Positions 20,161-56,114 of a DNA stretch of 64,000 nucleotides are shown here, in pieces. Made by a program: the position numbers and the translations under genes. The notes beneath the pieces were generated by a model. The model did not search any database. It saw only the letters and a program-made list of their open reading frames with translations, and was not told the origin of the DNA. Numbering within the stretch: the first letter of the stretch is position 1; every line of letters starts with the position of its first letter. This DNA comes from Craterostigma plantagineum. Its lineage: Eukaryota; Streptophyta; Magnoliopsida; Lamiales; Linderniaceae. The stretch is taken from contig JAPQWV010000641.1 in assembly GCA_027422505.1 (NCBI GenBank), positions 62,001-126,000 of the forward strand, read 5' to 3'.

Positions 20161-21585
20161 GACCATCTCTAACAGTCAATCGCAAACGCATTTTGCAGTA
20201 AATCATAGTTTGAAAATGTTCACCAACAGTCAACCGTGAAGGGGGTCCCGTTCAATATGGATGTAAAAACACTAAGTTGTAAACTGATGTTGGGTGAAAT
20301 GTCGGGTTAACACTCAATCCACAGTTGAAGCGCACAACGGAAATAGAACGAACTTAGTGACGAAATGAAACGAACACACGGAAGTGATTTTGTGCAGCAA
20401 GTCAAATAACTTGTTGCGTGCCTCAAGGCGCAAACTCCACTATAAAGATCGATTACAAACTATCAAAAAGGATAGTTAAAAACTAAGCCTAGCAAAACCT
20501 ACGAACCAAACGATTCTGCAAACTACAAAGTCATTCGACCTTTGAAAAACTAGGCTAAACAGAAAACTCTCTTGAGAGATGGTACTCGCTCGCTCTGATC
20601 ATCCCGTTCTCGCTCGTTAAAAGTTCGTCGCCTTGTCCGAAAATGAATTCGCCCTTATAAACTCTTCGACTTGGGCGTTACTCCACAAAATGGACTTAGC
20701 AACTGTCACTAACGTCCACTAACGTCCTTAAGGTAGATTTGGTCCATTAGTGACCGATAGGATGAGACTTGGTCAGCTCCAAACACTCGGTCTTCACTTG
20801 AGCTCCAAGCATCCTATTTTTAGTGTGCTCCTTTCCATTTTCTCGCTCCAGCTTATCCACACTCTTTCCACACGGTTTGATCCATTCTAGCACTTATCCA
20901 TATCCTGCCCAACACTAGAAAAATGCCACGTCACAAATAAAATTAGTTTTGGGCATGAAAGATAAAACTGAGATAGGGAACATTCTGGGCCAACAAATGT
21001 TGACTAGAATGTTACCCCAACATTGCTAATGTTGAAAGCTCAACATCAACAAACCGCAAACGCAAACGCAAAAGAATATTCTTGTATTGTTCTCTTTCAT
21101 AACAACTTTTATAATTTTTCAATATCACCCCTATATTAAATTACTCTACAAATTAACCGACAATATTCTTTTAATTTTGATTAAGAAAATATTTAAGCAA
21201 ATATATATAATTGGTCAAAATAGTATTTAATTATATCTTGTGGTCAAAACAATATATAATTGTATTATATATCAAAAATTATTTCTGCGATAAGTGTGAA
21301 GGTTAAAATAATGATTTATTATGTTAATTTATAATCATAATGATTACAATTTCAAATTCTTTAATATATTTTTATTTATTTTATATTTTTTTATTTAATA
21401 TTGTAATACAAGTAAAGGCCTTATTTGCAGATTTAAAACATCAACGCATTTTGCGTTCGAACGCAAATTTGCGTTCGCAACAGGAGAGAGAAAGCAAAAA
21501 ATGCATTTTGCTTTTTCGTTTGAAGTACTGTTGGAGCAGTTTTATTGCATTTTTGGTACGTTTTACAGTACTATTGGAGATGGGT
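20161..21585. mobile_element. Non-autonomous DNA transposon with inverted ends
   Basis: Ends are GACCATCTCTAACAGT (20,161) and ACTATTGGAGATGGGT (ending 21,585), an imperfect inverted pair. Both are flanked by TTA (20,158-20,160 and 21,586-21,588), as in PIF/Harbinger elements, though the superfamily call is tentative. Near both ends GCAAACGC/GCGTTCG phrases repeat. It has no coding capacity. Without the solo LTR inside it the element is about 605 bp. Confidence 0.6.
20237..21051 (-). repeat. Solo LTR of the large Copia family
   Basis: The 815-bp segment in reverse matches the LTRs at 32,726 and 50,549 from TGTTGATGTTGAG to CCCCCTTCA. It is flanked by AACCG on both sides (20,232-20,236 and 21,052-21,056), a perfect 5-bp target duplication. 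No internal sequence remains, so it is a solo LTR left by LTR-LTR recombination, inserted in the DNA transposon above. Confidence 0.92.
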
Positions 21586-32720: not shown

Positions 32721-32725
32721 GTGTT

Positions 32726-33523
32726 TGTTGATGTTGAGCTGTCAACATTGACAATGTTGGGGAACATTCTATCCAACATTTGTTGGCCGAGAATGTCTCA
32801 TTTCTCAGTTTTATCTTTCATACCCAAAACGTGTTTAATCCGTGTCTATGCTATCTTTAGTGTTTTGCAGGACTTGAATAAAGGTTGGGAATGGATCAGA
32901 CAGGGGGAGAACCGTGTGGATAAGGTTGAGCAATTAAGGAATGGAGCACACTAAATATAGGATGCTTGGAGATTAAGATGGAGACCAAGTGATTAGAGCT
33001 GACCAAGTCACTTCCTAACAGTCACTAACGGACCAAATCTACCTTGGGGACGTTTGTGGACGTTAGTGGTAGTTGTTGAGTCCACTTGTGGAGTAACGCC
33101 CAAGTCGAAGGAGTATAAAGGGGCGACTTCATTTCCCGGACTTTGTACGACGTTTTGACGAGAGAATCGAGCGAACTTTGAGAGATATCACGAGAGTTCA
33201 TTTTAGCCTAGCGTTCTGTTTGCAAATGTCTTAGGAGTTTGTAGGTTTTCAGGATCGTTTAGATTCGTAGTTTTTCTAGGCTTGTTTTCACTATCTTTTG
33301 ATAGTTATTTTGTAATCCATCATCGTAGTGGAATTTCACCTTGAGGCACGCAGCAAGTTGAAGAACTTGCTGCAAAATTTACATCTCGTGTTTATCATTT
33401 TCGTCACTAGGTAATTCACTATATTCCGCTGTGCTCGTGAGTGTTAGATTGAGTGTTAGCCAAATATTTCATCCAAGTGCAATCACTTAGTATTTACATC
33501 CATTTCGGACGGGACCCCCTTTT
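32726..33523 (+). repeat. 5' LTR of the large Copia element
   Basis: Begins TGTTGATGTTGAGCTGTC. The 3' end is CCCCCTT, then bases that differ from the CCCCCTTCA seen in the other two copies, so the last two or three positions are uncertain. It carries several ATGTTG and CAACAT half sites near its start. Confidence 0.9.
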
Positions 33524-33576: not shown

Positions 33577-35346
33577 TTGGATGTTACTAGCTCAAATTAC
33601 ATCGACAAAGTCCCTGTGTTAGATGGCACCAACTATGCTTATTGGAAGGTTCGTGTTCGGCAGTGCATCAAATCCATAGATGTGCGCGCGTGGGAATCAG
33701 TACTCAATGGATCACCTCGAATATCTCCTGATGTTGACGGAGAAGTCTTTGACAAGCCGGTCGAAGAGTGGATGGTTCTTGAGAGAAACACTGCCTAGTT
33801 CAATGATAAAGCCTTAAACGACATCTTCTCTTCGGTGGACATCTTCATGTTCAAGATCATCCAAAACTGCACTACTGCAAAGAACACGTGGGATCTACTT
33901 CAGAGGTATTGCGAAGGCGATGCGAGTGTGAGGAAAACCAGACTAAGGCTTATCCTCAACCAGTTCGAAAACCTCATATCGAAGAAAGACGAGGACGTTA
34001 CCACATACGTTGGAAAGCTCTTGACGATCTCGAGCGAATGTGCTAGCCTAGGAGATTCGATCGCCAATAAGGTATTGAATTCTACAGCAATACGTACACT
34101 AACTGAAAAGTTTAATGTGAAGGTAGCGGCTGCTGGGGAAGCACTTAACTTGGTCAATATGGACTTCAACACCTTGATGAATATTATGAAGAACTACGAG
34201 ACCAATCTCGAAGTCCGAAAGAGAGTTTCTCGCGGAAAAAGCCTCGCTCTAGTCAGTTAGCCATCTAGGGGTCAAACCGAGGATGACTCTGATGATGATG
34301 AGAATGCGGCCATGCTAGTGAAGAAGCTCACTAAGTTCTACAAGAAGAAGAATGTGGTGTCAAATGTTGGCCCAACATTTTGGAAAGGCCAAAGTGCAAA
34401 GGAACCGAAGTCAGCTCCTCCATTCTTCAATCGCAAACCAAATGAAAAGAAGAACTTCAACTGGGAATCAGTGAGATGCTATGAATGTCAAGGATGGGGC
34501 CATTTTACCAACGAATGTGCTAACACTCTTCGCAAGCACGGAAAGGCTATGTGGATCGATCTGTCCGACGATGAAGACGAGGAAACAAGTTCAAAGGAGT
34601 CCAAGAAGTCAAGTAACCATTCAATCCTTCTCGGACTGTGAAGAAGAAGAAGATCATCAAATCGGTTTTACGGCGGTAATTGATGTTGAGCCAACATTTG
34701 ACTACATCTGACAAACAAATTACTTTTATTATGATGACTCAAACTGTCTTGATGGCTATTCTAGTTCTGATGATGCAGAGTTAGAAACTGACTTTTGTGT
34801 AGAAGTCCAAATCAATGAAGCCGTCAAGTTGTTGTCCGTGCAATGTGAGAAGGAAAAGGCGAGGAATACGGAACTCAAAGCCGAGCAAAAGTTGTGTCCG
34901 AAGAAAACAAGAAAAATGAGAAGATGATAGAAAGCTTGTTGGATGGCATGAACAAGATGGAAGCCATACTGACACATAAGGACAAGGAGATTGACAAACT
35001 TCAAAAGCGAGTCAACGAGGCCAACGAAACGTTCACGAAGTTGAACAAGGGTAAATCGACCCTTGATAAGGTATTTTCATTAGGTATTTTTGATAAGCAA
35101 GGTTTAGGATTTAATTCTCAGTCTACTACTGATTCTATTGTTCATGATAGACCTAAGATAGTTTTTGTTAAGGAGAAGGCCGAGCATGTCACGAACGAGA
35201 GTAGTGAGAGTTTGATCGTTAAGAAAAATTCTAAGCATACTGCAAGTATGTCTAAGGACAGACAGTTTACATGTAACCATATATGCTGTCTGGTTATATT
35301 AAGCCATACTGCTGGAAATTGGAGGAGATTTCTGCGAAGAAATTGA
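33577..35346 (+). pseudogene. Copia gag, disabled
   Basis: Gag packages the element RNA. The N-terminal part reads PVLDGTNYAYWKVRVRQCIK (33,610 on). After a stop at about 33,797 comes a UBN2-type gag domain: NTWDLLQRYCEGDASVRKTR and YVGKLLTISSECASLGD. A stop falls at 34,258. A zinc knuckle CYECQGWGHFTNEC follows at about 34,475. A Lys/Glu-rich coiled-coil stretch (34,894-35,060, MEAILTHKDKEIDKLQKRV) leads to a second knuckle near 35,270, broken across two frames. Two ATGTTG..CAACAT inverted repeats lie in this part, encoding SNVGPTF (34,363) and DVEPTF (34,682). Confidence 0.85.
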
Positions 35347-38300
35347 TGTCGGCTGCAAAGTCATCCAACATCCCGCTCAATATTGAGAAATCAGGGTTGA
35401 AAGGTGTGTCTGGAGGAAGTTCAGTTGGCGCTCCTTCAAATTCTGGTGCTCCAAATGCTGTTTTATCATTTAAGAAAGTCTGGGTAGAGAAGTCTGTGTA
35501 TAAATGCAATGTTGTGTATACCTTTTTGCGAGCTAACGTGATAGGTTCTTGGTACTTCGGTAGCGGGTGTTCCCGACATATGACGGTTACCAAAGAATAT
35601 CAAAGCCAGTACAAGCCATTAAAGTGTGGATCGGTGACGTTCGGAGGAGGTCGTAAAGGACGGATTCTCGGTCGAGGCAGATTGAACGTTCCAGCTTTCC
35701 AAAGCTTAGTAATGTGCTTCATGTTGATGGACTTGTTGCTAACTTGATTAGCATAAGTCAGCTTTGCGACGATGATCTAGAGGTAAGATTCAACAAAGAA
35801 TATTGTGAAGTCTTTAACAACAATTGCCTGCGAGTTATGACAGGTAAAAGATCAAGCGACAATTGCTACTTAGTCGGCGACAAATCTAGCTCGCAGGACG
35901 TGTGCCAATAATCGAAGGCCGAAGACGAGGTGATCTTGTGGCATTACAAACTGGGACACGTCAACTACCGAACCTTGGAGCAGCTTATCAAACACGAAGC
36001 CATCAGAGGCATCCCAAAGTTAAAGGAGTTCGGTAAGGTTGTATGTGAGTCATATCTTAGGGGTAAACAAGTGCATGTTAGCCATAATGTTGATCAACAT
36101 GCTGCCCAACATTTTAAAACTGCTCACTGTTTTCAACTTATGCACATGGATTTGTTGGGTTCGATGGAAGTAGATAGTATTGGTGGTAGAAAATATGCTT
36201 ATGTGCTCGTTGATGATACTCTAGATACGGATGGATATTTTTCTTCGGGGAAAAATCTGAGTCATTCGATTTTTTCAAAAAATTATGTGCTAAGATTAAG
36301 AATAATTTCAGTGCGTCTATTTCTCGTATTAGGTCTGATCATGGTAGGGAATTTGAGAATCAATCGTTTGATGAATTCTGTGATAGGAAAGGTATTAGCA
36401 TGAAAATTCATCTCCTAATACGCCGCAACAAAATGGGGTGGCCGAAAGGAAGAATAGGACCTTGCAAGAAATGTCACGTGTTATGTTGCAATCTAAGAGT
36501 ATCTCTAAGCGCTTTTGAGCTGAAGCTTTACATACTGCATGTCACATATCTAATCGTGTGTTCTTTCATCATGGTACTAAGAAACGTCGTATGAGTTGTT
36601 GAATGGAAAAAAGCCTACTGTGAAGTATTTTAATGTCTTTGGATGCTTCTGTTATATGCTGAATGATCGTGACTACTTGACCAAATTTGATGCAAAAAGT
36701 TACAAGTGCATTTTTCTAGGTTACTCGTCTAATAGTCGTGCATATCGTGTATATAACTTACGCTTGAAATCTGTTTAGGAGTCTATAAATATTGTATTTG
36801 ATGGTGCTACTGATCTAAGCAGAAATGCTCCACAAGTTGATATTTCAGATGTTGTCAAAGCGGTTGATGAAACAGAAGCGGATGTGCAGGAAAATGTTGA
36901 GCCAACATCTGACTCAACATCAGCCCCTGAACAGAATGATGATGTTGGACCCAGCGAGGTGCGAAGAGATCCTCTTGCGAAGATACATAAAGACCGTCCC
37001 ACAAACTTAATCATTGGAGATGTGAACGTAGGGAGGAAACGAGAGGCAAGCTGCGCAAGGATTATAAGTCTATGGTAAGGAACGTATGCATGAATTCTGT
37101 ATACGGGGAGGTACGTTTTAATTGTTTTTGTTTCTGAGATAGAACCTAATGTCCTTGAAGCTCTCAAGGATAACTTTTGGATAAATGCGATGCAAGAGAA
37201 ACTCTTGTAGTTTGAAAAAAACCAAGTGTGGACCTTGGTTCCACGGCCGGAAAACATTAATATCATAGGCACTAAGTGGATCTTCAAGAATAAATCGGAT
37301 GAACTTGGTAGGGATGTTAGAACAAAGCACGTTTGGTAGCTCAAGGTTATACTCAAGTAGAAGGCATAGATTTTGATGAGACGTTTGCTTCTGTGGCTAG
37401 GCTAGAATCGATTAGGTTGTTGTTAGCTATTGCCTATTGGCTAACATCACGTTGCACCAAATGGATGTTAATGGTGCATTTTTAAATGGGTACATTGATA
37501 AAGATATTTATGTCGAACAGCCTAAGGGATTCGAAGACCCGCATTTTCCTAACCATCTTTTTAAGCTACAGAAAGTGTTGTATGGTCTAAAGCAAGCTCC
37601 TCGAGCTTGGTACGCGAGTTTACCCACATTTTTACTTGAATTTGGGTTCGTACGAGATGAGGCTGACCGTACTCTTTTCATAAAGAGAGTCGGTATTGAT
37701 ATTTTGATTGCTCAAACTTATGTTGATGATATTGTTTTTGGAGCAAGCTCACAATCTATATTAGATCAGTTCGTACAGGCTATGAACACCACATTCAAGA
37801 TGAGCATGATCGGGGAACTAACCTTTTTATGAGGCTTGCAGATCAAACAAAGCAGTGACGGGATCTTTATGTCTCAGGAAAAGTACCCTAAGAACACTGT
37901 GAATAAGTTCAGGTTGGACACGGCGAAGGTAATGAAAACACCCATGGGGACTACGCAAAAGGTAAGTAAAGGCAATGTTGGACAGAATGTTGACCCAACA
38001 TTGTATCAATCCATGATAGGCGGTTTATGTACATGTCAGCTAGTAGACCCGACATTATGTATAGCGTATGTGTCTGTGCTAGATATCAATCCGTGCCTAA
38101 GGTGTCTCATCTAAATGCCGTTAAACGTATACTTCGTTAGGTGAGCGGAACGTGTAGCCTAGGATGTGGTTCTCAAAAGATACTAATATGAGTCTTGTAG
38201 GCTACAACGATGCTGATTGGGTAGCTGACGAGGATGATCAGAGCACAATTGACGGTTGTTTCTTCTTAGGTAACAATTTAGTTGTTTGGTATAGTAAGAA

Positions 38301-38650
38301 GCAAAACTGTGTGTCTTTATCTACTGTTGAGCCTGAGTATGTTGTCGTTGGTAGTTGTTGTACGCAATTAATGTGGTTGAATAACATGTTGTGTCTATGG
38401 TTTAGAGTGCGAATCTGTTCTCATGTATTGTGATAACCTTAGTGCCATCAACATATCTAAGAACCCCATCCAGCATTCACGCACAAAGTATATAGATAAA
38501 AGACATCATTTATGAGAGATATGGTAGAGAAAGAGTTAGTGCACATTGAGCATATAGACACAAAAATCAGTTAGCTGACATTTTCACGAAAGCATTGGAC
38601 TCTGAAAGATTTTCAGACCTGAAGAAATCCATAGGTTTGCATCAGTCTGT
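35347..38650 (+). pseudogene. Copia pol (protease, integrase, RT, RNase H), disabled
   Basis: Protease: WYFGSGCSRHMTV (about 35,550); the catalytic Asp of the usual DSG is Gly. Pre-integrase: LWHYKLGHVNYRTLEQL (35,936). Integrase: HMDLLGSMEVDSIGGRKYAYVLVDD (about 36,145) and, frameshifted, the NGVAERKNRT region near 36,430. RT: GTKWIFKNK (about 37,270), [26 protein letters not shown] (37,450), LYGLKQAPRAWY, and TYVDDIVFGAS with intact YVDD (about 37,720). RNase H: GYNDADWVADEDDQSTIDGCFFLG (38,200), where the usual first catalytic Asp is retained in DADW, and SLSTVEPEYV. Stops and frameshifts lie near 35,745, 36,230, 36,390, 36,590, 36,776, 37,330, 37,830, 38,113 and 38,430. The frame ends at about 38,654. 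Confidence 0.88.
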
Positions 38651-38682
38651 CTGAATGTTGGCCAACATTTGGATAAACATAG

Positions 38683-39190
38683 CAGTCAAATTTGATAGTT
38701 ACTGTTTTGAAGTTTGATTTCGTATTCTGTTCTGTTTTCCTGTGAAATGACTTGATTCTTCTTGACTGGTTCCTGAATGAACCCGATCCCTAAATTATAG
38801 GCTCTTGGTAATAAGTTCCCTAGGTACATGGCATTCGCGGTGACGATGTACTCTTTGCGACAAAATACCAATCCTTGACACATATAAGCCTGCTCATAAG
38901 CTCTGTGCAAGATATGGGTACTTGGTAATAAGCTTTCGTAGGTACACGACATTCGTTGTGATGATGTACCCTATGCGACAAAAAAAATCCAAACCTTGAT
39001 GCTTAGGGTACAAGGGCAATGCATAAAATCGGATAGATAAATAAGACGAAAGGGTAGAAATGAAAGGGAATTGGTTTTGAGAAGGATTGGGCAGATAAGT
39101 CTCGGATACGGAGTAAGATATTGAGTCAAATGTTGGGGCAACATGTGTAGCTGTCAGTTTGATCATGCTATATTACTGTGCTTTCGTTTA
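38683..39190 (+). repeat. Noncoding module shared with the nested Gypsy element
   Basis: This block lies between pol and ORF3. Read in the same sense, it matches 44,080-43,660 (minus strand) in the same order: AACCCGATCCCT, GGTACATGGCATTCG, GATGTACTCTTTGCGACAAA, AAACCTTGATGCTTAGGG, GCAATGCATAAAAT, ATGAAAGGGAATTG and GTTTGATCATGCTAT. One part (TTGGTAATAAG to GATGTAC) occurs twice here, near 38,805-38,855 and 38,925-38,970, but once in the Gypsy element. It has no coding frame. Confidence 0.85.
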
Positions 39191-39688
39191 TGTGCATTAG
39201 TTATTAAGTAAACATATGTTAGTGTCTTGTGTCTAGTTCATATTTCTCTCAGAGTTGCATTAGAACTCTCGAAGAACAGCTTGTTCCATTTGTCTTAAGT
39301 GCTCATCATCGACACCTAAATGGTTAATCTCGCTTATGTCTTCTATGAATTTTGACTTGGTTTATTTTTGAGTTCAATCATGTTCTGATATGCTACTAAA
39401 TTTTTGGTTGACCGATTCGTTCATATACTATATTTATGTTCATAGTCAAGTCATGATCTAGTCCAAGCTTAATCTTTCAAACAGCCATATTACTCAATGA
39501 TTCCAACGGTTATTTTTCAGTCCAATTAACTCCTTTATATGCGAGAATTGCTCAGTGACTATTTTTATTTTTCTATGTTAGAACTGTCTCATATTTATGC
39601 CCTGGCTTAGTTTGATCGAGCATCACTGTTCACAAACCCTACTAGCATTGTCGGAACTACTCTGTGATTTCTTTACTACGCTTTTCAA

Positions 39689-41023
39689 TTGTTCGATAGA
39701 ATTTCAAGGGTGAACAACCTGTCCAGCTTTTTCAACAAACCTCCAGATTTTAAGATGTCAAATTCACCTCCTAGACCGAATGTTGGCTCAACATTCGACA
39801 CTGGCATTGATTTTCCAGTTCCTCTTGAAGTTGTCCCACGTCCTCAAGAAATTGTGGTTTACAGAGGTCCCTTCCAACCTTGTATTCCGACGCCTCAGAC
39901 TGAAGAAGTTCCACCGCGTAACTCCGTGAAGCAGCGCCGACCAGTGAAGCCAACCCAAATGCAGCAAACCCAACTTCTGATGGAAACCCTCAAGAACCCA
40001 TCCCTGAAAGTCAAGAAATCCGGCATGAAACAGAGCCGAATCCCATCTCCGACGAAATCCCAATTTTCGGCGAAGTTGAGACCGAAAGCTCAACCCAACC
40101 CAAATCCTTCCAAAGAAACCACAACTGAAATGGCTTCCAAACCAGTCCCTGAGAAAATCCAAGAATAGCTACAAAGAAGTCTGATGGGTCGACCTCAAAG
40201 TTCCCAACTGTGCCTACAAGATGTTGAAGCAACCGAGTTCGAGGGTACCTGAACCCCACTTTCAACGCCGACGACCCCATTGGTCTGTCTAGCTCCTCTA
40301 CTGAATCGATCATCGACTCGACTACCTATGATGACTTGGAGTCTGACAGTGATGACGAAGATTTAATCAATTTAGGGGGAGAGACTCCCTCTTACGTATC
40401 GGAGTCTCTCACTGACTCTGACGTGCAACGAATTAATGATGAGAACGAGGCTGACATGGAGGAAACCCTGTTCGCCGTGAAGAACAAGCTCAAGAAGATA
40501 GCTGGGAAGAGGCCTGTAGAAGATGAAGTTAGGCCGTCGAAGAGAGCTCGCACTGAGGATTCATCGCAACCAGACGCTAACCTTCATGCCCTCTCACCTG
40601 TCCCAACCAATAACGAAAATGTTGAGCCATATACTGACCCAAGATTGGATGATTCTGACTGGGAGACCCCGCTGCCTACCCAAAAGTTCTATAGACCAGT
40701 CAACGAGGATCAGTGGGAAATCCTGAGACATAGGCTCGTACGGGTAGAGCAGGTTGTGGACGTCGCAAGCTTCAGGAAGTACGGTGTGATGCAATTCCTG
40801 GAGTCGCGACACCTCGGGCACATGGTGACAAGTTTTGGAACGTGCTGTAACTAAGTCGTCCGTGAGGTATATGCGAACCTTTTCTTTAACGTAGCTGAGA
40901 TAAATTCTAAGAAGTATGGGAAAGTGTTTTTGACGGGGAGGCTGTATGATATGTCTTCTAGCGCTATTTTCTGAAAACACCCGAGGTAGATATGGGTTAC
41001 GAGTATGACAACGATGAGGTGGT
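39689..41023 (+). pseudogene. Copia third ORF, 5' part
   Basis: It encodes a Pro/Ser-rich N-terminal part (39,689-40,168), an acidic stretch (40,336-40,500, SDSDDEDLINLGGETPSY), a basic RPSKRART patch (about 40,535), then FYRPVNEDQWEILRHRLVRV and FLESRHLGHMVTSFG. After a frameshift at about 40,850 come EVYANLFFNVAEINSKKYG and GRLYDMSSS. The last stretch resembles the putative plant transposon protein domain (PF20167-like) found between pol and the 3' LTR of some plant elements; that name is from memory. Function unknown; similar ORFs have been called env-like. It has frame breaks at 40,168, 40,850 and 40,970, and is cut at DEVVD (41,023) by Gypsy sequence. Two inverted repeats lie here, at 39,779 (PNVGSTF) and 40,618 (ENVEP, half site). 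Confidence 0.65.
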
Positions 41024-41676
41024 TGATCGGCACGTGGTGTGTGAATGGAAAGTGCGACAAGTAATAATTAAAACGAATACCTAATTACTATCACCGACGT
41101 GCGATAGGCAGTGGACCTATCGTTTGTAGTGCAGTAAAGTGAGTAAACGAGTATCGAACACAAGGAATGAATCAATTACTAGTAGTGACCTATCGACTCG
41201 ATATCTAGCCTAAACAAAATACGCAATTTGTTTGACGACTTATTCTAACAGATCGTTCCTAAATCAACTAGAGATTCAAATAGCACGCTTAAAACTGATA
41301 CGAAGCTTCAGATAATAAAGATGTGCTCGGGATTCGAATCCCGCTAGGTGTTATCGACTAAGACAATAAAATCGTTCCTACGTGATCTTGACTAAATCGC
41401 AGTAATTTCCTACCCGCTCGCGAATTTGCTGTCGCCCTAAACGCTCGCGGGGATCTAAAATTCAATAATTACTAACGGCGAGGATCGAGTATTTGCTTCC
41501 GCCCTATACTCGAATCCTATCTTCTATGAACGGCCTAAACGTTGTTTAGCTGTCGCTCTAAACGTTTTTCCACACGATCACTTTAACACATAGACATATT
41601 AAAGCGACGAAACATATTCATAGAACGATAAATAGTCAAAACACAAAATCACGATAATATACGTCTTAAGTACGAC
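41024..41676 (-). repeat. Truncated extra Gypsy LTR
   Basis: It matches the first about 653 bp (plus-strand order) of the LTR at 41,677-43,225, from TGATCGGCACGTGG to AAGTACGA, and then stops where the next LTR begins. It is visibly more diverged than the two full LTRs are from each other. It contains CGGGATTCGAATCCCG, a perfect palindrome that reads CGGGATTTGAATCCCG in the other two copies. Confidence 0.88.
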
Positions 41677-43225
41677 TGATCGACACGTGGTGTGTGAATG
41701 AAAAGTGCGACAAGTAATAATTAAAACGAATACCAAATTACTATCACCGACGTGCGATAGGCAGTGGACCTATCGTTTGTAGTGCAGTAAAGTGAGTAAA
41801 CGAGTACCGAACACAAGGAATAAATCAATTACTAGTAGTGACCTATCGACTCGATATTTAGCCTAAACAAAATACGAAATTTGTTTGACGACTTATCCTA
41901 ACAGATCGTTCCTAAATCAACTAGAGATCCAAATAGCACGCTTAAAACTGATACGAAGCTTCAGATAATAAAGATGTGCTCGGGATTTGAATCCCGCTAG
42001 GTGTTATCGACTAAGACAATAAAATCGTTCCTACGTGATCTTGACTAGATCGCAGTAATTATCCTACCCGCTCGCGAGTTTGCTGTCGCCCTAAACGCTC
42101 GCGGGGATCTAAGATTCAGTAATTACTAAAGGCGAGGATCGAGTATTTGCTTTCGCCCTATACTCGATTCCTATCTTCTACGAATGGCCTAAACGTTGTT
42201 TAGCTGTCGCCCTAAACGTTTTTCCATACGATTACTTTAACACATAGACATATTAAAGCAACGAAACAAATTCAAAGAATGATAAATAGTCAAAACACAT
42301 AGTCACGATAATTATAAATCTTAACTACGAAACATCCTAGCGTTCATCTAATCCCAAACACAAAGGGGAATTAGCTACGCATAATAGACGGGAAAACAAT
42401 GAAAGAAATAAGGAATAAAGGCGAAGAATTCATATTCTTGATATTCGGATGATCTGCGATGGAAGCGTCGATGATTCTTCGTTCTTCGTTCAATTGGGCG
42501 TGATTTCGTCGATGATCCGTCTCTTGCGCTCCGGGACGCGATTCTGCGTTCTTATGTGCTATTTTTCGTCTCTAGAGGGATTAGGGTTGATCTCTGGTCG
42601 GTTGTGCCCTTTCTGGGTCGAATTTGGGCTTTTTATAGTGAAATTCGACACTGTCACGGCCTGGGACAAGACAGGTCACGGCCGTGACACTCTCTGGGTC
42701 GAATTTGAGCTCACTGCCGCTCGTCACGGCCTGGTGCAGCAGTGTCACGGCCGTGATCCCCTCAACAGCTTTGCGGCAGTTTCGTATTTCTCTCGGATGG
42801 AGGGATAAACGATGTCCGATTGACCTGAAATTTTAACCATAGATAGAAGACTCGCCAATCTTGATTCTGACCAAACGGATTCTCAATCCGAGATCTGGAT
42901 TGAGAGATATGAATTTTTTAATGCTGCTGCTGCTATGGGTCACGGCCTGGTGCAAGAAGTGTCACGGCCGTGACCATCTTCAGTCTAACTCTCTGCCAAG
43001 TGTCACGGCCAGGTGCACTATGTGTCACGGCCGTGACCTTCACCAGTTTTCATCGTTTTCGCGTCGTTTTGCCTCGTTTTCGCTCCTTTTCGCCCGAAAC
43101 TTGTCCTAAAGCCTTATAATACCTAAACAAGCAGAAATAGGGTTAATAAGTGCATAAAATGACTACGAAAACTCTATTATGAGCCAATTAAATACTATGA
43201 TAAACGTACTACGATACGTTTATCA
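41677..43225 (-). repeat. 3' LTR of the Gypsy element
   Basis: In plus-strand order it runs TGATCGACACGTGG to CGATACGTTTATCA. It carries four pairs of GTCACGGCCTGG-like and TCACGGCCGTGA phrases between 42,652 and 43,040. A 119-codon frame (42,449-42,808) is also present in the other LTR because the copies are nearly identical, not because it is a gene. Confidence 0.93.
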
Positions 43226-44817
43226 AACCTCCCCACACTTCAGCATTTGCTTGTCCTCAAGTAATTAGAAGTCAGAAAAGGCATCAGATCAAGATAACGG
43301 CACGATTGTTCGCAATTTATCAACAAAGCTAGAAAGCACAAAACGGAATCAAGCAAACAATCATGGACATCGCAATAATGACTTGCACTTGTTGACCTAA
43401 ACTTCCTTCGCACTGCCAGTCGAGACTCATACCTCACAGGGATTCGCTCAAATCACTCAGTGTATAGGTTAACATATAGTGAATCACTCAAATCGTGCAC
43501 TAGTCTCACCCCTACCATAAACTTGCAAGCTAATCGCATCTCTACTATTTAAAGTGGCAAGCATAAATTTGAGGGTCTTTCGGGGGAAAACGGGTCGAGT
43601 AATCATGAAGTGACAAGTATGTATAATGAATACGTAATCGTATAGCTAGGACACGTAAGCGAAAAGTATCAAAGACATAGCATGATCAAACTAACAGTCA
43701 CATGCTCCAACATAGACTCAACGTTCTCGCTCTGAAATCCTAGACTTTTCTGCCCGACCCTCTCAACTCAATTCCCTTTCATTTTCTGCCCTTTCACCTT
43801 AATTACGCTCTAATTTTATGCACTGCCCTTATTCCCTAAACATCAAGGTTTGGCTTTTGTCGCAAAGAATACATCGTCACAACGAATGCCGTGTACCTAG
43901 GGATACTTATTACCAAAACCTATATCTTGCAAAAAGTTTATGGGCAGGCTAATATAAGGGATCGGGTCATTTCAGAAAATGGTCAAATAAGGGCGAGTCA
44001 TTTCACGAATAGCAGAGAAGAACATCAAATCATACACTGAAACAGTAACTTTCAAGTTCGACTTCTGCTCTATTCTAATCAACTCGGGTTCATATAATCT
44101 CTTGAGGTTTATTCGAGTCAGTGGCTTATATGATTTACGAGGAAAGCAAACAAATAGGCTCATCTCAAAGTGGTAACTAATGGGGTTAGTCATGGAAGGG
44201 AAATCTGGCCCTGGACTTAATTCCTAATGCCCTCGTCATTTCCATACTAACGCACCAAAACAGTTTCAACACGTATCAGACAGGCAAGTTCTAGAGAGAT
44301 ATAGACTAGGCACGTCACACAACCAAGAAAATGAGCATAAGCTCGTCAGGCTCAAACTCTCACAACGAAACAGGGTTATGTGTACGAATCTCTCAAGACA
44401 GTGCTATATCTATTTAGGCAGACACGATTCAATCAGTCATGCATATCCTAATTGCTCACAAAAATTCATAATAATGCAGACCAACTCGAGATAAGTGCAA
44501 ACAATCATGTCTGATTTAGCTAATTTATGCCTTTCTAACGAAATTCACGACTCACAGACACGTCATAAAAAAAATTTTACGTGCATTTTCAACCTAAATT
44601 TCCCTCCCAACACTTAAGCCGTACGTTGTCCTCAACGTAAAAATTGAATAAACGAAAGGGAAAAGTAGGTGTAACAGAACGAAACTTCCCTGACGGAAAA
44701 TATTGACGTGGTCGTGACTAGACGCGTGATGGTTGTCATATCGTGACTCGTGATGCCTGGGTTGCCTCCCAAGAAGCGCTTCCTTTACCGTCTTTAGCCG
44801 GACGTGATTGCGTTCGC
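43226..44817 (-). other. Gypsy noncoding region with shared module
   Basis: This 1.6-kb stretch between the gag stop and the 3' LTR has no gene. Its part at 44,080-43,660 matches the noncoding module of the Copia element at 38,683-39,190 in the same sense. The purine tract at 43,240-43,226 would prime plus-strand DNA synthesis. Confidence 0.8.
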
Positions 44818-47691
44818 TTAGGGTGGCTGGAAGTCGAGGTACAACATCTCTTTTCTGCTTAAGTTTTCCTCGCCTACATCCATACCATGGCGGTGTCTCC
44901 TTTCGCCGGGCAGCGGTTTCAACTCTAGTGGCGGTCGCTCCTCGACTGGGCTCTTGTCCTTAACTTTTTCGATGCTCTCGTCGATGACTATGATGGGTTC
45001 GTCGATCTCCTCCCCACATTTATCGAATGCCATAATCGTGTGCCTATCATGCTCGCTGACCTGTGATAGACCTTGCACAGAAAAGAGAAAATCGCGCTCA
45101 AAGACATCTAAGAAATAGCATTTATCATCTTGCTCATTGCTCTTTTTCATCGAATCAGCCATATTGAATGTAACTTTTTCACCGTCTACTGTCAAGGTTA
45201 ATGTTCCATTCCTAACATCTATCATGGTCTCGCCTGTAGCTAAGAATGGTCTACCTAGAATTAATGGAACATTTTCATCCTCGTCCATGTCTAAGATCAC
45301 AAAATCAGCAGGGATAACGAACTTATCGACCTTAACTAGAATATCCTCGATAACACCTAGGGGGTATTTTAACGATCTATCGGCCAGTTGAATACTCATT
45401 CTAGTGGGTCGTGGTTCACCTAATCCTAAGCGCTTAAACATGGAGTACCGCATTAAATTTATACTAGCGCCTAGATCAGCTAAAGCATGCTCAACAACTA
45501 AATCACCTATCAGACAAGGAATAGTAAAACTCCCTGGGTCCTTGAGTTTTTTCGGTATCTTGCTCTGGAGTATCGCCGAGCACTCTCCTCGTAGGTATAC
45601 CGTGGAGACGTGTTCGAGCTTCCGTCGATTCGTCAGCAAGTCCTTCAGGAACTTAACGAAACTGGGCATCTGCGCAATAGCTTCAACAAACGGTAAGTTA
45701 ATATGTAATTCTTTGCACATACCCATGAATTTGCCAGTTATCGCTTCTTCTTTGTCCTTCTTCAACCGTGTTGGATAGGGAATCTTCGGCTGGTACGGCA
45801 TCACTAGTGGCCGCTCGTTCTCCCTCGCTTTTTCTATTTCGGGTGCAGCCTCCTCCATTTTAGGTTGAACCTTCTCTTTTTCAGGTGCATCTCCCCTCAA
45901 CCGAGCTGGATGTGGGATCTTTGGTTGATACGGCTTCACGAATGGCCGCGTCTTTCTCTCGTCATCCTTGACCTTCTCGACTCCGTCGCCCTTACTTTCC
46001 TCCACTTCTGGCTCGTCGTGGCCCTCGAAATCGACTTTCTCCTTTAAATTCTGCTTGGTGGGAGCTTCTTGTAATCCTCTCCCGCTTCTCAGGATTACCG
46101 CATTGCAATACTCCTTGGGGTTTCTCTCGGTGTAGCTCGGGAGTGATCCTTGATTTCGCCCCGCCATTTGCTGTGCTAATTGCCCCACTTGTTGCTCCAA
46201 CCTCTTGATCGAGGCGTCTCTATTCTGAGCACGGATGTCATTCGCCTCCATGTACTCCTCCATCTTTGTCATTCGGCTTTCGTGGGCTGCGGTGGTGCTA
46301 CTGAAATTCGTGAGAAGTGCCTTCATCATGTCCTTCATCTCCCCCATGTCGTCGGATCCTCCTGCGGGCGCGTTCTGGTACTGTCGTGGTGGCCCATTTT
46401 GGAATCCGGACGGTCGGGGCTGAAATCCTGAAGGTCCTTGGCCCTGATGGTTCTGATTCCCGTACGCCAGGTTTGCATGTGCCCGGGGCTGAAAACTTCG
46501 CTGGCCGCCTTGGTAATTTCCCATATAATCTATGTGTTCCAGCGGCTGCCCAAGTTGGCAATCTGAGGTCTCGTGGGCTGAGCCGCAAATCCCGCATAAT
46601 GGTACGTAAGGCGTGTGCTGTGTCGGTGTGGTGGTGGCCACGACGTTCACGGGCTGGGTCTGCCCGGACTTGGGAAGCAATGCACCAATCACCGTCTGCA
46701 ACTGAGAGTTCGTCGAGGCGAGTTGTTGCTGGAGCGCCTCGATCTTAGCGTTAGTGGCCGTCTCCTCGCTCACTCCAAATACGCCTGTCGTCTTCATCCT
46801 GGTATTGCCCCTCATGAAACTATTCCTCGAGTAGTCCTCAATCAAATTCCACGCGTCGGTGGCGTTGAGCTTCACGAGCCCTCCTCCTGCGGCTCCGTCT
46901 AACATATGGACCGTCTGATCATTGAGACCCTCGTGGAATCGGTTGATCTGGGCTGCCTTCGACATCCCGTGCTGTGGGCACCTCTTCAGTAGCGCCTTGT
47001 AACGCTCCCACACCTCATACAAGTTTTCGGAGACCTTCTGGTGGAACAGAGAAATCTCCGTCTTCAATCGTAACACCTTTGTTAGTGGGAAGTAGTGGTT
47101 GATGAAGGCGGCTTGCATCTCCTCCCAGGTAGTGATCGATCTGGGCGGCAACATATCCAACCAGTCTCTCGCTCTGAACTTGAGCGAGAACAGAAACAGC
47201 ATCAATTTGATTGCATCGCCCGGGACACCATTGATCTTGATAGTATCGGTCACCGTCAGAAACGCCTTCAGATGGGAGTAAGGGTCGTCATCTGGGTTGC
47301 CCTCAAACTGGGCCGTCTGAAAGATCATCTGAAGCCAAGAGTGCTTCAGTTCGAAATTGTTGTTCTCGATCGGCGGGATGACAATCGCCGACTCCGTACC
47401 GCCTAGCGCGACATTCTTGAGGAGGTCCTGAAGAGACGGTTCCTCCTCTGAAACGTTGTGGACGGGCACTCGGTGGTCTGCCATGTCTACTTCTGTATTT
47501 GGGCTATCTACGGCTGCCTCTACACGTGAATTCTGAATGGATTCCTGCGAACTATCCTCTGAATAACAAACTAGCGGATCCTGAGAGCTGGTTGATGCTC
47601 CTTCGGTATCGTACTTAAGCTTCCTTCGTAACTTCCGCTCGAAATCCGGGTCTGTGTCAACGATGGGACCCGATGGATGGCTTCGGGTCAT
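44818..47691 (-). CDS. Gypsy gag-protease ORF, intact (957 aa)
   Basis: It is the longest open frame in the window and has no break. Residues about 110-300 form a Retrotrans_gag domain (WLQMIFQTAQFEGNPDDDPY, WDMLPP-like RDWLDMLPPRSITTWEEM, INRFHEGLNDQT). A zinc knuckle CGICGSAHETSDC, of the C-x2-C-x3-H-x4-C spacing seen in Athila gags, follows at about 370. A Gln/Gly-rich and a coiled-coil part (SIKRLEQQVGQLAQQMAG, about 500) lead to a Lys/Pro repeat region where VKPYQPKIPHPARL and VMPYQPKIPYPTRL recur. The aspartic protease comes near 730-840, with VEHALADLGASINLMRY (catalytic Asp in DLGAS) and PLILGRPFLATG. Gag would form the particle and protease would process it. The frame ends at 44,818, before where RT should start, and no RT follows. 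Confidence 0.92.
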   Translation of the reverse strand: MTRSHPSGPIVDTDPDFERKLRRKLKYDTEGASTSSQDPLVCYSEDSSQESIQNSRVEAAVDSPNTEVDMADHRVPVHNVSEEEPSLQDLLKNVALGGTESAIVIPPIENNNFELKHSWLQMIFQTAQFEGNPDDDPYSHLKAFLTVTDTIKINGVPGDAIKLMLFLFSLKFRARDWLDMLPPRSITTWEEMQAAFINHYFPLTKVLRLKTEISLFHQKVSENLYEVWERYKALLKRCPQHGMSKAAQINRFHEGLNDQTVHMLDGAAGGGLVKLNATDAWNLIEDYSRNSFMRGNTRMKTTGVFGVSEETATNAKIEALQQQLASTNSQLQTVIGALLPKSGQTQPVNVVATTTPTQHTPYVPLCGICGSAHETSDCQLGQPLEHIDYMGNYQGGQRSFQPRAHANLAYGNQNHQGQGPSGFQPRPSGFQNGPPRQYQNAPAGGSDDMGEMKDMMKALLTNFSSTTAAHESRMTKMEEYMEANDIRAQNRDASIKRLEQQVGQLAQQMAGRNQGSLPSYTERNPKEYCNAVILRSGRGLQEAPTKQNLKEKVDFEGHDEPEVEESKGDGVEKVKDDERKTRPFVKPYQPKIPHPARLRGDAPEKEKVQPKMEEAAPEIEKARENERPLVMPYQPKIPYPTRLKKDKEEAITGKFMGMCKELHINLPFVEAIAQMPSFVKFLKDLLTNRRKLEHVSTVYLRGECSAILQSKIPKKLKDPGSFTIPCLIGDLVVEHALADLGASINLMRYSMFKRLGLGEPRPTRMSIQLADRSLKYPLGVIEDILVKVDKFVIPADFVILDMDEDENVPLILGRPFLATGETMIDVRNGTLTLTVDGEKVTFNMADSMKKSNEQDDKCYFLDVFERDFLFSVQGLSQVSEHDRHTIMAFDKCGEEIDEPIIVIDESIEKVKDKSPVEERPPLELKPLPGERRHRHGMDVGEENLSRKEMLYLDFQPP

Positions 47692-47918
47692 TCACCGCTG
47701 AATCGTACCTTCAGTACGTGAAAACAAAAATTAGCAAAGGAATACTAAAAACGTCGTAAAGATTACGATAGTACTAATGACGCAGGAAACAAATAACGCA
47801 AATAACACAAATAACGCAAATAGTAATAGCAAATAAAGACGTCAAATAAAAGTGGCTAAATTACCGAACTACGGTGTTCCTAATATCAATTTAATCCCCG
47901 GCAATGGCGCCAAAAACT
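47692..47918 (-). promoter_or_regulatory. Gypsy leader with primer binding site
   Basis: Between the 5' LTR (ending at 47,919 on the minus strand) and the gag ATG. The primer site TGGCGCCATTGCCGGGGA occupies 47,912-47,895. Confidence 0.8.
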
Positions 47919-49467
47919 TGATCGACACGTGGTGTGTGAATGAAAAGTGCGACAAGTAATAATTAAAACGAATACCAAATTACTATCACCGACGTGCGAT
48001 AGGCAGTGGACCTATCGTTTGTAGTGCAGTAAAGTGAGTAAACGAGTATCGAACAAAAGGAATAAATCAATTACTAGTAGTGACCTATCGACTCGATATT
48101 TAGCCTAAACAAAATACGAAATTTGTTTGACGACTTATCCTAACAGATCGTTCCTAAATCAACTAGAGATTCAAATAGCACGCTTAAAACTGATACGAAG
48201 CTTCAGATAATAAAGATGTGCTCGGGATTTGAATCCCGCTAGGTGTTATCGACTAAGACAATAAAATCGTTCCTACGTGATCTTGACTAGATCGCAGTAA
48301 TTATCCTACCCGCTCGCGAGTTTGCTGTCGCCCTAAACGCTCGCGGGGATCTATGATTCAGCAATTACTAACGGCGAGGATCGAGTATTTGCTTTCGCCC
48401 TATACTCGATTCCTATCTTCTACGAACGGCCTAAACGTTGTTTAGCTGTCGCCCTAAACGTTTTTCCATACGATTACTTTAACACATAGACATATTAAAG
48501 CAACGAAACAAATTCATAGAATGATAAATAGTCAAAACACATAGTCACGATAATTATAAATCTTAACTACGAAACATCCTAGCGTTCATCTAATCCCAAA
48601 CACAAAGGGGAATTAGCTACGCATAATAGACGGGAAAACAATGAAAGAAATAAGGAATAAAGGCGAAGAATTCATATTCTTGATATTCGGATGATCTGCG
48701 ATGGAAGCGTCGATGATTCTTCGTTCTTCGTTCAATTGGGCGTGATTTCGTCGATGATCCGTCTCTTGCGCTCCGGGACGCGATTCTGCGTTCTTATGTG
48801 CTATTTTTCGTCTCTAGAGGGATTAGGGTTGATCTCTGGTCGGTTGTGCCCTTTCTGGGTCGAATTTGGGCTTTTTATAGTGAAATTCGACACTGTCACG
48901 GCCTGGGACAAGACAGGTCACGGCCGTGACACTCTCTGGGTCGAATTTGAGCTCACTGCCGCTCGTCACGGCCTGGTGCAGCAGTGTCACGGCCGTGATC
49001 CCCTCAACAGCTTTGCGGCAGTTTCGTATTTCTCTCGGATGGAGGGGTAAACAATGTCCGATTGACCTGAAATTTTAACCATAGATAGAAGACTCGCCAA
49101 TCTTGATTCTGACCAAACGGATTCTCAATCCGAGATCTGGATTGAGAGATATGAATTTTTTAATGCTGCTACTGCTATGGGTCACGGCCTGGTGCAAGAA
49201 GTGTCACGGCCGTGACCATCTTCAGTCTAACTCTCTGCCAAGTGTCACGGCCAGGTGCACTATGTGTCACGGCCGTGACCTTCACCAGTTTTCATCGTTT
49301 TCGCGCCGTTTTGCCTCGTTTTCGCTACTTTTCGCCCAAAACTTGTCCTAAAGCCTTATAATACCTAAACAAGCAGAAATAGGGTTAATAAGTGCATAAA
49401 ATGACTACGAAAACTCTATTATGAGCCAATTACATACTATGATAAACGTACTACGATACGTTTATCA
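47919..49467 (-). repeat. 5' LTR of the Gypsy element
   Basis: Same length and nearly the same sequence as the copy at 41,677. The four palindrome pairs lie at about 48,894-49,282. Its right end joins directly to Copia ORF3 sequence (AIRFITGGR). Confidence 0.93.
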
Positions 49468-50214
49468 GCGATTCGCTTTATCACTGGGGGTAGAGTGACT
49501 GTTTGGGAAGGTAATTGAGGGGGTAGTGCTTTAACATCATTGTATTCGGTGCTTTTTAAGATTGGAGTGTGTAGTTGGTTACCTACGTTGAATGAAATGA
49601 GGATGACTGAGGGCATGGCACACCTGCTGTATGCACTTGGCCGCGATCTGCAAATGAATTGGGGAGAGTTAATCCTCAATCATATGTCGAACCAAGCTGA
49701 AAAGGTAGGGAAATGAATTCTCCCTTACCCGTCGATCATTTATGGAGTTCTTCTGCAAGGCGGATTTCAACCAACCCGGCGAGATAATGTGATCTCTCAT
49801 AGGATTCCATATGTGGTTCAACCAAATCATTTGGCGGGCTCGGACAGACTTGTAGACCTCCCTTGGCACACGCTAGAACAACTCATGTAAGATATTGATC
49901 AGAATGTTGGGTCAACATCTAATGCAACCCTAGAACAGGTGATCAAGTGCCTTGAAGAGTCCATCGCATCTTTGGTGGCTCAAAGAGATATCTTAAGGAG
50001 CTTACTTCCTTCCCAAAAAGGGGGAGATAGGGCAGAAGGATCTAGGGCTGAGGATCAAGTGGGGCCGAGTGGTACGGAGGCTAGAGTTGGACAAAACGCT
50101 GAAGCAGAACAAGTAGGGGAGAACACGAGCAAGAGGAAGTTGCTGAGGACAGAGATGGAGCTGAAAGAGAAGCTGGAGCTGGAGATGATGCTGAATCGAG
50201 TCAGAGTCCTGTGA
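49468..50214 (+). pseudogene. Copia third ORF, 3' part
   Basis: The frame AIRFITGGRVTVWEG continues what was cut at DEVVD (41,023). It goes on as TLNEMRMTEGMAHLLYALGR and MNWGELILNHMSNQAEK, then after a stop IIYGVLLQGGFQPTR. A last open part (49,939-50,214) has a coiled coil LEESIASLVAQRDILRSLLP and a Glu/Lys-rich tail. It has stops near 49,517, 49,710 and 49,888. An inverted repeat at 49,903 encodes QNVGSTS. With 39,689-41,023 it makes up the ORF between pol and the 3' LTR. Confidence 0.65.
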
Positions 50215-50548
50215 TTTAGATTATTGCGGTCTAAGTCATTTGCGTGCCTGCGTGCTTTTATTGCTTTTTGCGTTTCATGCTTGCCTGTCTTACTTGCGTA
50301 TTTAGGTTGCTTGCGTATGTTTTCAGTTTGCCTATGGACCATTTTATTTTGTTTTGCAGTTGTGTTTAATCTTCAGACCTCTTTATGGCTTGTACTATTT
50401 TAGTAGTACTTTGAGTAGTTTAATAGCTATTATGTTTGCGTTTACTCTAACCATATTTTATGGTTGAGTAGATTTAGCCTTCAGGGAGAGTTTTGCTAGG
50501 ACTAAATTCTGTGTTGGTTTTCGGAAGAAAGATAAAAAAGGGGGAGAT

Positions 50549-51334
50549 TGTTGATGTTGAGATGTCAACATTGGCAATGTTGGGGGAACATTGTTGGCCG
50601 AGAATGTCTCATTTGTCAGTTTTATCTTTCATACCCAAAAAATGTTTAATCCGTGTCTAGGCTATTTTTAGTGTTTTGCAGGACTTGAATAAACGTTGGG
50701 AATGGATCAGACCGGTGGTGTGGATAAGGTTGAGCGAATTAAGGAATGGAGCATACTAAATAAAGGATGCTTAGAGCTTAAGATGGAGACCAAGTGATTA
50801 GAGCTGACCAAGTCACTTCCTAACAGTCACTGACGGACCAAATCTACCTTGGGGACGTTAGTGGACGTTAGTGGTAGTTGCTGAGTCCATTTGTGGAGTA
50901 ACTCCCAAGTCGAAGGTGTATAAAAGGGCGACTTCATTTCCGGGACTGTGTACGATATTTTGACGAGAGAAAATATCGAGCGAACTTTGAGAGAGATATC
51001 ACGAGAGTTCATTTTCGCCTAGTGTTCTGTTTGCAAAAGTTTTAGGACTTTGTACGTTTTCAGGATCTTTTAGTTTCGTAGTTTTTCTAGGCTTGTTTTC
51101 ACTATTTTTTGATAGTTGTTTTGTAATCCATCATCGTAGTGGAATTTCGCCTTGAGGCACGCAGCAAGTTGGAGAACTTGCTGCAAAATTTACATCTCGT
51201 GTTTATCATTTTCGTCACTAAGCAATTCACTATTTTCCGCAGTGCTCGTGAGTGTTAATTTAGTGTTAGCCCAACATTTCATCCAACATCAGTGTAATCA
51301 CTAAGTATTTACATCCATTTCGTAACCCCCTTCA
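50549..51334 (+). repeat. 3' LTR of the large Copia element
   Basis: Begins TGTTGATGTTGAGATGTC and ends CCCCCTTCA, right after the purine tract AAAAAAGGGGGAGA (50,533-50,547). It differs from the 5' LTR by scattered changes and small deletions. Confidence 0.92.
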
Positions 51335-51345
51335 GTGTTCACTTT

Positions 51346-53630: not shown

Positions 53631-53717
53631 ACTCACACACACACATAACGTAATGCAACACATTTACCGAGCAAACACAAAGCCCTTTGGTCTAAACCAC
53701 CATCAATCATTTTGCTT

Positions 53718-56114
<2,397 letters not shown>

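What the first reader, a model, noticed from the sequence alone, without database searches (positions are those of the whole stretch)
34363..49920. A short inverted repeat recurs through a Copia element, always in the same codon phase
The pattern AATGTTG-n(1-4)-CAACATT occurs at 34,363, 34,682, 36,086, 36,893, 37,986, 38,654, 39,129, 39,779 and 49,903, with half sites at 36,104, 36,911, 36,941, 37,974 and 40,618. The copy at 38,654 is a perfect palindrome, AATGTTGGCCAACATT. In coding parts every copy is read AAT GTT G.., giving SNVGPTF, DVEPTF, NVDQH, NVEPTS, NVDPTL, NVGSTF, NVEP and QNVGSTS in gag, integrase, RT and ORF3. Two copies lie in noncoding DNA, and both LTRs begin with several half sites, as does the solo LTR at 21,051-20,237. 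The Gypsy element inside lacks it. A DNA word seeded in unrelated proteins and noncoding parts points to a function at DNA or RNA level: protein binding sites, RNA hairpins for packaging, or a seeding mechanism. I know of LTR palindromes in Sireviruses but not of this.
Basis: partly seen in the sequence, partly recalled or inferred. Interest (0 to 1): 0.82.

Follow-up and report, generated by a model that had tools for sequence, protein, structure and literature searches.

The report
Binding-site array tiling a plant retrotransposon
A family of plant jumping genes carries the same short DNA word, in a fixed symmetrical arrangement, about every 750 bases along its length, even inside its protein genes, as if a DNA-binding protein had to dock all along it; which protein, and why, is not known.

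Summary
The host is a Sirevirus-type Copia element in a 1.71-Gb assembly. AATGTTGNNNCAACATT occurs there 4,921 times against 3 for the reversed control. The unit is a half-site, R-ATGTTG-R-n-Y, in fixed geometry: inverted pairs with 3-nt (sometimes 2-nt) spacers and direct pairs with 6-nt spacers, as >>< or ><<. One copy (L010) has 14 clusters from 5' LTR start to 3' LTR start: both LTR ends, gag, pol, pol stop codon, linker, ORF3; gaps 350-1148 bp, more even than chance. Positions recur across copies. Third codon positions inside half-sites are 0.95 conserved against 0.66 outside. Both orientations occur in one element (39 >> and 62 <<), and no core stem pair changed on both sides, so duplex-DNA recognition fits better than an RNA hairpin. 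Best reading: a tiled array for an oligomeric DNA-binding protein, perhaps for activation or anti-silencing. Sirevirus LTR/linker palindromes and VANC arrays are the nearest known kinds; in what I read neither tiles coding sequence. The binder is unidentified; no unbiased sample and no other species could be tested.

The parts
32723..33521 (+). 5' LTR of the Copia (Sirevirus-type) element
   Evidence: self-alignment 89.6% to the 3' LTR
32731..32779 (.). LTR 5'-end half-site cluster: ATGTTG-N6-CAACAT-N5-ATGTTG ... CAACAT
   Evidence: similar layout in L010 and, more divergent, L021
33527..33539 (+). primer binding site TGGTATCAGAGCC
   Evidence: read; its identity as a Met-tRNA primer site is recalled
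34363..34379 (.). gag site, NVGPTF; outer half-site degenerate in the window
   Evidence: arms 0.991 vs flanks 0.766 in 16 copies
34682..34698 (.). gag site, DVEPTF
   Evidence: arms 0.955 vs flanks 0.821 in 16 copies
35366..35383 (.). worn direct pair before integrase (<< in L010 at 3999/4011)
   Evidence: the two L010 half-sites are intact in 0.88 and 0.94 of 16 copies
36086..36113 (.). pre-integrase/IN site, N2 spacer, ><<, NVDQH
   Evidence: arms 0.948 vs flanks 0.836 in 15 copies
36893..36920 (.). integrase C-terminal site, ><<, NVEPTS
   Evidence: arms 0.935 vs flanks 0.772 in 11 copies
37974..38002 (.). RT/RNase H site, >><, NVGQNVDPTL
   Evidence: arms 0.955 vs flanks 0.828 in 16 copies; kept in divergent L147
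38654..38669 (.). site on the pol stop codon; its first base is the last base of TGA in 9 of 20 fetched stretches
   Evidence: arms 0.996 vs flanks 0.866 in 16 copies
39129..39145 (.). noncoding linker site
   Evidence: arms 0.893 vs flanks 0.813 in 16 copies
39779..39795 (.). site just after the ORF3 start (MSNSPPRPNVGSTF)
   Evidence: aligned in only 2 copies
40618..40643 (.). worn ORF3-middle site (NVEPYTDPRL)
   Evidence: two exact half-sites in L010 near 9626
41023..49467 (.). Gypsy insertion; carries no inverted pair
49903..49919 (.). ORF3 3' site, NVGSTS
   Evidence: L145:447-473 has >>< there
50539..50550 (+). terminal polypurine tract AGGGGGAG + AT/TG attachment site
50548..51343 (+). 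3' LTR
50554..50590 (.). LTR 5'-end cluster of the 3' LTR
51272..51289 (.). LTR 3'-end direct pair CAACAT-N6-CAACAT
   Evidence: same in L010:2071/2083
20239..21054 (-). solo LTR, 74-75% identical, with a half-site cluster at its 5' end and a worn one at the other end

Best explanation
The word is the half-site of a sequence-specific double-stranded-DNA-binding protein that binds as an oligomer. Half-site R-ATGTTG-R-n-Y; inner pair inverted with a 3-bp centre; a further half-site 12 bp outward in direct orientation. An element such as the L010 copy carries about 14 such docking sites, one per roughly 0.75 kb, from LTR to LTR, whether or not the DNA is coding. Shown by computation: word, geometry, positions, spacing and constraint beyond protein coding. 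Inferred: that a protein binds it, and that the benefit to the element is to be recognised along its whole length, most likely for transcriptional activation or anti-silencing of the integrated DNA, in the manner of VANC on VANDAL (or of TnpA on En/Spm, recalled). Whether the binder is encoded by element or host is unknown.
For: 4,921 against 3 genome-wide. Fixed geometry in 20 loci plus window: nearest inverted spacers 3 nt 87, 2 nt 10, 6 nt 3, then 15 nt 62 and 14 nt 13, which the composites produce; direct spacer 6 nt 105, next commonest 17 nt with 15. Both orientations within one element: 3 >> and 5 << positions in the L010 copy; 39 >> and 62 << in 20 stretches turned to the element's direction. 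Same purine/pyrimidine flanks at half-sites inside and outside inverted pairs. Third codon positions 0.950 (n=32) vs 0.663 (n=1719); noncoding linker 0.990 (18) vs 0.837 (745). Outer coding half-sites that were not part of the search word: 0.930 (12) vs 0.656 (1716). Even tiling in L010: gaps 350-1148 bp, CV 0.285; 0 of 20,000 random placements as even under one clustering rule, 1 and 0 of 20,000 under two looser ones. Kept in divergent L021 (gag pieces 44-47% aa; LTR ends) and L147 (RT 65-70% aa; RT/RNase H site).
Against: No binder identified: ORF3 folded poorly (mean pLDDT 38) and matches only Pfam PF20167, below its cut-off. Copies were fetched because they hold at least one exact site, so the share of family members that carry the array is unknown. 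Nothing bears directly on transcription or methylation. The two orientations are not equally common (39 to 62). Evenness weakens if a large minimum distance is assumed (23 of 5000 at 300 bp), and is weaker in L020 (59 of 5000) and in the worn window copy (CV 0.48, fraction 0.016); the clusters were defined after seeing the data. One outer half-site (L010:2972) is intact in only 0.35 of copies, about the average for any hexamer.
Confidence: 0.67

Rival explanations
1. RNA-level signal: the inverted pairs form hairpins in the genomic RNA, or complementary half-sites pair over long range, for packaging, dimerisation or compaction.
For: In 3 of 6 window sites folded (34682, 38654, 39779) the inner pair forms the stem; in the other three CAACAT pairs with an outer or degenerate half-site instead; z-scores -0.89 to -2.76. 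Of two fetched-copy stretches, one folds better than all 200 shuffles (z -2.91) and one does not (z -0.37). << exceeds >> 62 to 39. At the outermost pair of the linker site 5 of 16 copies have T..A where others have A..T or A..G, a two-sided difference. Equal spacing of >> and << pairs would suit two-part RNA-RNA pairing.
Against: Both orientations are used within one element; to an RNA-binding factor these are different molecules. Direct spacing fixed at 6 nt; flank preference at half-sites outside inverted pairs; of 538 core stem cells at six sites, 25 had a one-sided and none a two-sided change, though variation is low. With a 2-nt spacer the full stem cannot close; site 36086 folds otherwise.
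Confidence: 0.15
2. Host transcription factor sites captured for ordinary enhancement, with the coding-region sites acting as internal enhancers. RAV-type AP2 domains, recalled to bind CAACA, are one lead. This shares the DNA-binding part with the best explanation and differs in binder and purpose.
For: Palindromic repeated motifs in Sirevirus LTRs were proposed as activators (PMC2829016); LTR-end clusters are kept in the most divergent relative seen (L021).
Against: An enhancer would not be expected to need even tiling through gag, pol and ORF3 or a site on the pol stop codon. No factor was tested here.
Confidence: 0.3
3. Protein-level constraint: the peptide N/D-V-x-x-T is itself functional, for instance as a protease cleavage site, and the DNA word follows from it.
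For: One phase in 47 of 52 open-frame cases.
Against: Half-sites are also kept in LTR ends and linker and at synonymous positions, and are not reproduced by synonymous shuffles.
Confidence: 0.02
4. Plain common descent: sites are shared only because the copies are related.
For: Copies are about 66-87% alike in the main alignments and share positions; they were picked for holding a site.
Against: Half-sites stand out within the same alignments: whole hexamers intact in 0.58-1.00 of copies at 15 of the 16 half-sites listed, 0.35 at L010:2972, against a mean of 0.335 for other hexamers; the number of sites within one element is itself far above chance.
Confidence: 0.04

Closest known systems
Sirevirus palindromic repeated motifs (RM), Bousios et al. 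2010, PMC2829016
   Same: Sirevirus elements; short palindromes with a spacer, many copies per element, in LTR and linker.
   Different: RMs have a CGG-CCG core (except Tnd-1, ACAATCGATTGT), cluster mostly in the upper LTR half and upstream of the envelope-like gene (some at its beginning), and border CpG islands; none is reported in gag or pol in the parts read. Here the word lacks that core, sits at LTR ends and tiles coding DNA, with a direct 12-bp period.
VANC-bound motif arrays of VANDAL DNA transposons (PMC5735166 passages, PMC10398659 abstract)
   Same: A short family-specific word repeated at high density in one transposon family; VANC21 affects the whole element.
   Different: [quoted passage not shown] Here inverted composites also lie inside genes; no VANC-like gene was recognised, and none was searched for by name.
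TnpA sites of En/Spm; Su(Hw) sites in Drosophila gypsy (both recalled, no call)
   Same: Repeated protein-binding sites inside a mobile element.
   Different: As recalled, confined to subterminal or untranslated parts.

Membership tests
Sirevirus (Pseudoviridae) | terminal PPT AGGGGGAG followed by AT/TG attachment site | tested here: met
   window 50539 and L145:1022; definition
Sirevirus (Pseudoviridae) | multiple PPT octamers near the 3' LTR | tested here: met
   2 in the window (50019, 50539), 4 in L145
Sirevirus (Pseudoviridae) | inverted repeat around the PPT/3' LTR junction | tested here: inconclusive
   complementary stretches AGAAAGATAAAA and TTTTATCTTTC seen by eye; not scored
Sirevirus (Pseudoviridae) | Copia domains gag, gag-pre-integrase, RVT_2 in that order | tested here: met
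   PF14223, PF13976, PF07727 in three separate pieces; no integrase-core piece was scanned
Sirevirus (Pseudoviridae) | placement inside the Sirevirus clade of an RT tree | not tested
   no reference RT set was to hand
Sirevirus RM boxes | CGG-CCG core palindrome, at least 8 copies, upper half of LTR and upstream of envelope-like gene | tested here: not met
   the 12 commonest inverted 6-mers in the element contain no CGG core (longer or rarer boxes not searched); the clusters found lie at LTR ends and through coding DNA
VANC/VANDAL-type anti-silencing | same-orientation motif arrays, mainly in noncoding DNA | tested here: not met
   description
VANC/VANDAL-type anti-silencing | element-encoded protein that binds the motif and removes methylation | not testable with these tools
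   ORF3 resembles PF20167 below cut-off, fold unresolved

The most novel reading that the evidence does not exclude
An LTR retrotransposon lineage has written a regularly spaced array of binding sites, one per about 0.75 kb, through its own genes and LTRs so that a dedicated protein coats the integrated DNA from end to end: a sequence-specific self-recognition system (anti-silencing or chromatin organising) in a retrotransposon, embedded in coding sequence at synonymous cost.
Probability: 0.35. Interest if true: 0.92.

Novelty: new variant of a known kind. Interest (0 to 1): 0.78.

Why it matters
How plant retrotransposons keep escaping silencing is open; sequence-specific anti-silencing is described for VANDAL DNA transposons. 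A conserved, evenly tiled site array running through the genes of a Copia element is a concrete handle: the composite site can be used as bait to fish out the binder. It also shows that retrotransposon coding sequence can carry a second, DNA-level layer of information strong enough to hold synonymous positions.

Tried and rejected
Protein relatives: one search with the 163-aa pre-integrase/IN piece gave 21 word-sharing candidates, none scoring; RT-RNase H (438 aa) against viral and prokaryote contigs matched patterns in 3 and 22 stretches, none confirmed. So no other species was compared. ORF3 as candidate binder: AlphaFold on 8 sequences, mean pLDDT 38; no fold search made. Viral contigs holding one AATGTTGNNNCAACATT served as a background: a scan cut at 120 stretches, 1.04 Mb, none with a second inverted pair, four with one direct-N6 pair. 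Other Copia elements inside L021 and L146 (about 30-60% aa identity) show only single half-sites by eye. An siRNA-target reading was set aside because spacers differ between sites. Protein-level reading: see rivals. Two ideas of mine were mended: (1) some conserved sites looked like direct pairs with no inverted partner, but L010:3999 and the LTR 3' end have a degenerate partner at the right distance; (2) the counts of 45 >> and 49 << were taken on stretches as laid in the genome, 10 of 20 of them reversed, so their balance meant nothing; turned to the element's direction they are 39 and 62. Because of (2) I lowered the best explanation from 0.70 to 0.67 and raised the RNA rival from 0.12 to 0.15; other odds stand.
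Full report
What is there. The window holds a worn Copia element (LTRs about 32723-33521 and 50548-51343, 89.6% alike) split by a Gypsy insertion at 41023-49467. All seven inside open coding segments are read AAT GTT G or GAT GTT G. Synonymous-codon shuffles of the element's coding pieces (2123 codons) never reached the observed 7 inverted pairs, 3 direct pairs and 28 half-sites in 2000 trials. An existing copy elsewhere, L010, gave the same result for its gag-pol pieces (4, 5 and 20; none of 2000).

The genome. The window is part of a 1.71-Gb assembly of 6262 contigs. AATGTTGNNNCAACATT occurs there at 4,921 places against 3 for the same pattern read backwards. I fetched 20 stretches of 10 kb around sites listed first on contig 1, and later 2 kb beyond L010 and three more stretches around listed sites. 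All 20 hold sequence aligning to the family. In those 200 kb, 84 of 88 inverted pairs (N2-3) and 94 of 101 direct pairs (N6) lie in stretches aligning to the family; the other 11 lie, by look, in divergent LTR ends and ORF3-like sequence of the same group. This sample is ascertained: each stretch was chosen for having at least one exact site.

Geometry. The unit is not simply a palindrome. Among half-sites ATGTTG/CAACAT in the 20 loci plus the window element, the nearest inverted partner is 3 nt (87), 2 nt (10) or 6 nt (3) away, or 14-15 nt (75), as expected where a second half-site lies between; direct pairs have a 6-nt spacer 105 times, the next commonest being 17 nt with 15. The composites are >>< or ><<, occasionally >><<. 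Flanks agree: half-sites that are only in direct pairs show purine at -1 (0.87 of 79 distinct words), purine at +6 (0.95) and pyrimidine at +8 (0.86), like those in inverted pairs (0.84, 0.85, 0.88 of 80) and unlike lone ones (0.71, 0.71, 0.59 of 235). Part of this may reflect coding, since many sites share a codon phase. The half-site is therefore about 10 bp, R-ATGTTG-R-n-Y, and two of them overlap at the centre of each palindrome.

Position and evenness. In the L010 copy 14 clusters run from the 5' LTR start to the 3' LTR start: LTR 5' end, LTR 3' end, gag twice, before integrase, integrase, integrase C-terminus, RT/RNase H, pol stop codon, linker, ORF3 start, middle and end, and the 3' LTR. 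Gaps are 350-1148 bp, CV 0.285. None of 20,000 random placements was as even under one clustering rule, and 1 and 0 of 20,000 under two looser ones; with an enforced minimum distance of 300 bp, 23 of 5000 were. L024 has nearly the same gaps (1 of 5000), L020 is less even (59 of 5000), and the worn window copy is weaker (CV 0.48, fraction 0.016). These copies are related, so they are not independent tests, and the clusters were defined after seeing the data. In nine of the 20 stretches an open frame ends exactly at the palindrome, the stop's last base being its first base.

Constraint. At seven of the nine window sites 11 to 16 copies could be aligned: arms are 0.893-0.996 identical, flanks 0.766-0.866; 39779 aligned in two copies and 49903 in none. 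Against L010, third codon positions in paired half-sites are 0.950 conserved (n=32) vs 0.663 (n=1719), fourfold positions 0.933 (20) vs 0.608 (656), noncoding linker 0.990 (18) vs 0.837 (745). To meet the ascertainment, outer half-sites outside the search word were tested alone: 0.930 (12) vs 0.656 (1716), p 7e-5; one of them, L010:2972, is intact in only 0.35 of copies. More distant relatives keep the pattern in part: L021 (gag pieces 44-47% aa identity in the two main alignments) at both LTR ends, L147 (RT 65-70% aa) as a full >>< at RT/RNase H.

DNA or RNA. Both orientations are used within one element: 3 >> and 5 << positions in the L010 copy, 39 >> and 62 << in the 20 stretches turned to the element's direction, 27 >>< and 40 ><<. 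To an RNA-binding factor these would be different molecules, to a DNA-binding one the same. My earlier count of 45 and 49 was on unturned stretches and is not evidence. In 538 core stem cells at six sites, 25 had a change on one side and none on both; variation is low, so this is weak. At the outermost pair of the linker site, not among those six, 5 of 16 copies do differ on both sides. RNA folding of six window sites gave the inner stem in three, z -0.89 to -2.76. I therefore favour a duplex-binding oligomer; that any protein binds is inference.

Function. Shown: word, geometry, positions, evenness, constraint. Inferred: binder and benefit. Several window sites are worn, so constraint seems to act on the replicating lineage and not on each old insertion; that too is inference. 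A function that needs sites along the whole integrated DNA fits best: activation or anti-silencing, as described for VANC21 on VANDAL21 (passages of PMC5735166; outline and abstract of PMC10398659). ORF3 is the one protein of unassigned role noticed here. It resembles PF20167 below the cut-off and did not fold confidently, so it is a candidate without support.

What is known. Two sequence features of Sireviruses are met: AGGGGGAG with AT/TG at the 3' LTR, and several PPTs (definitions in PMC2829016, Results parts 1 and 2 of 3). That paper describes palindromic motifs in Sirevirus LTRs and upstream of the envelope-like gene (sections 9 and 19 read), nearly all with a CGG-CCG core, and reports none in gag or pol in what I read. 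A 2016 follow-up on maize Sirevirus LTR palindromes is not held and is known to me only by title and passing mention in PMC5311732 (passages). Searches bearing on this word or on such arrays (listings only, apart from the papers named here) showed no description of it; most subscription papers are not in that library.

Verdict. A real, conserved feature above the protein level; a new variant of the palindromic arrays known in Sireviruses, with coding-sequence tiling and fixed multi-half-site geometry as the new points.

Noticed in passing
41023-43225 and 47918-49467: Gypsy insertion with LTRs 99.0% alike and a further partial LTR (41023-41675, 95%) in tandem upstream; on the minus strand a 957-aa gag/protease frame.
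   Followed up: partly
38882-39171 and 43955-43677: A 290-bp piece of the Copia linker recurs reversed (78%) inside the Gypsy element, with a worn copy of the linker site.
   Followed up: partly
38654 and L010:7315-7334: The palindrome begins on the last base of the pol stop codon in nine stretches; whether it affects termination or readthrough is untested.
   Followed up: partly
40228-40854, 49519-50214; L010:8385-9998, L145:2-739: ORF3 has a conserved core resembling PF20167 'putative plant transposon protein' below its cut-off; a helix near the C-terminus is the only part modelled with confidence. Membrane segments were not looked for.
   Followed up: partly
L013:2501-2545 and 9135-9179: A divergent LTR has a four-half-site array >><< near its 3' end where L010-type LTRs have <<, so site content at LTR ends differs between families.
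   Followed up: no
53712-56114: An 800-aa open frame that looks by eye like a subtilisin-like protease, with a long isoleucine run at the start of the frame as listed.
   Followed up: no
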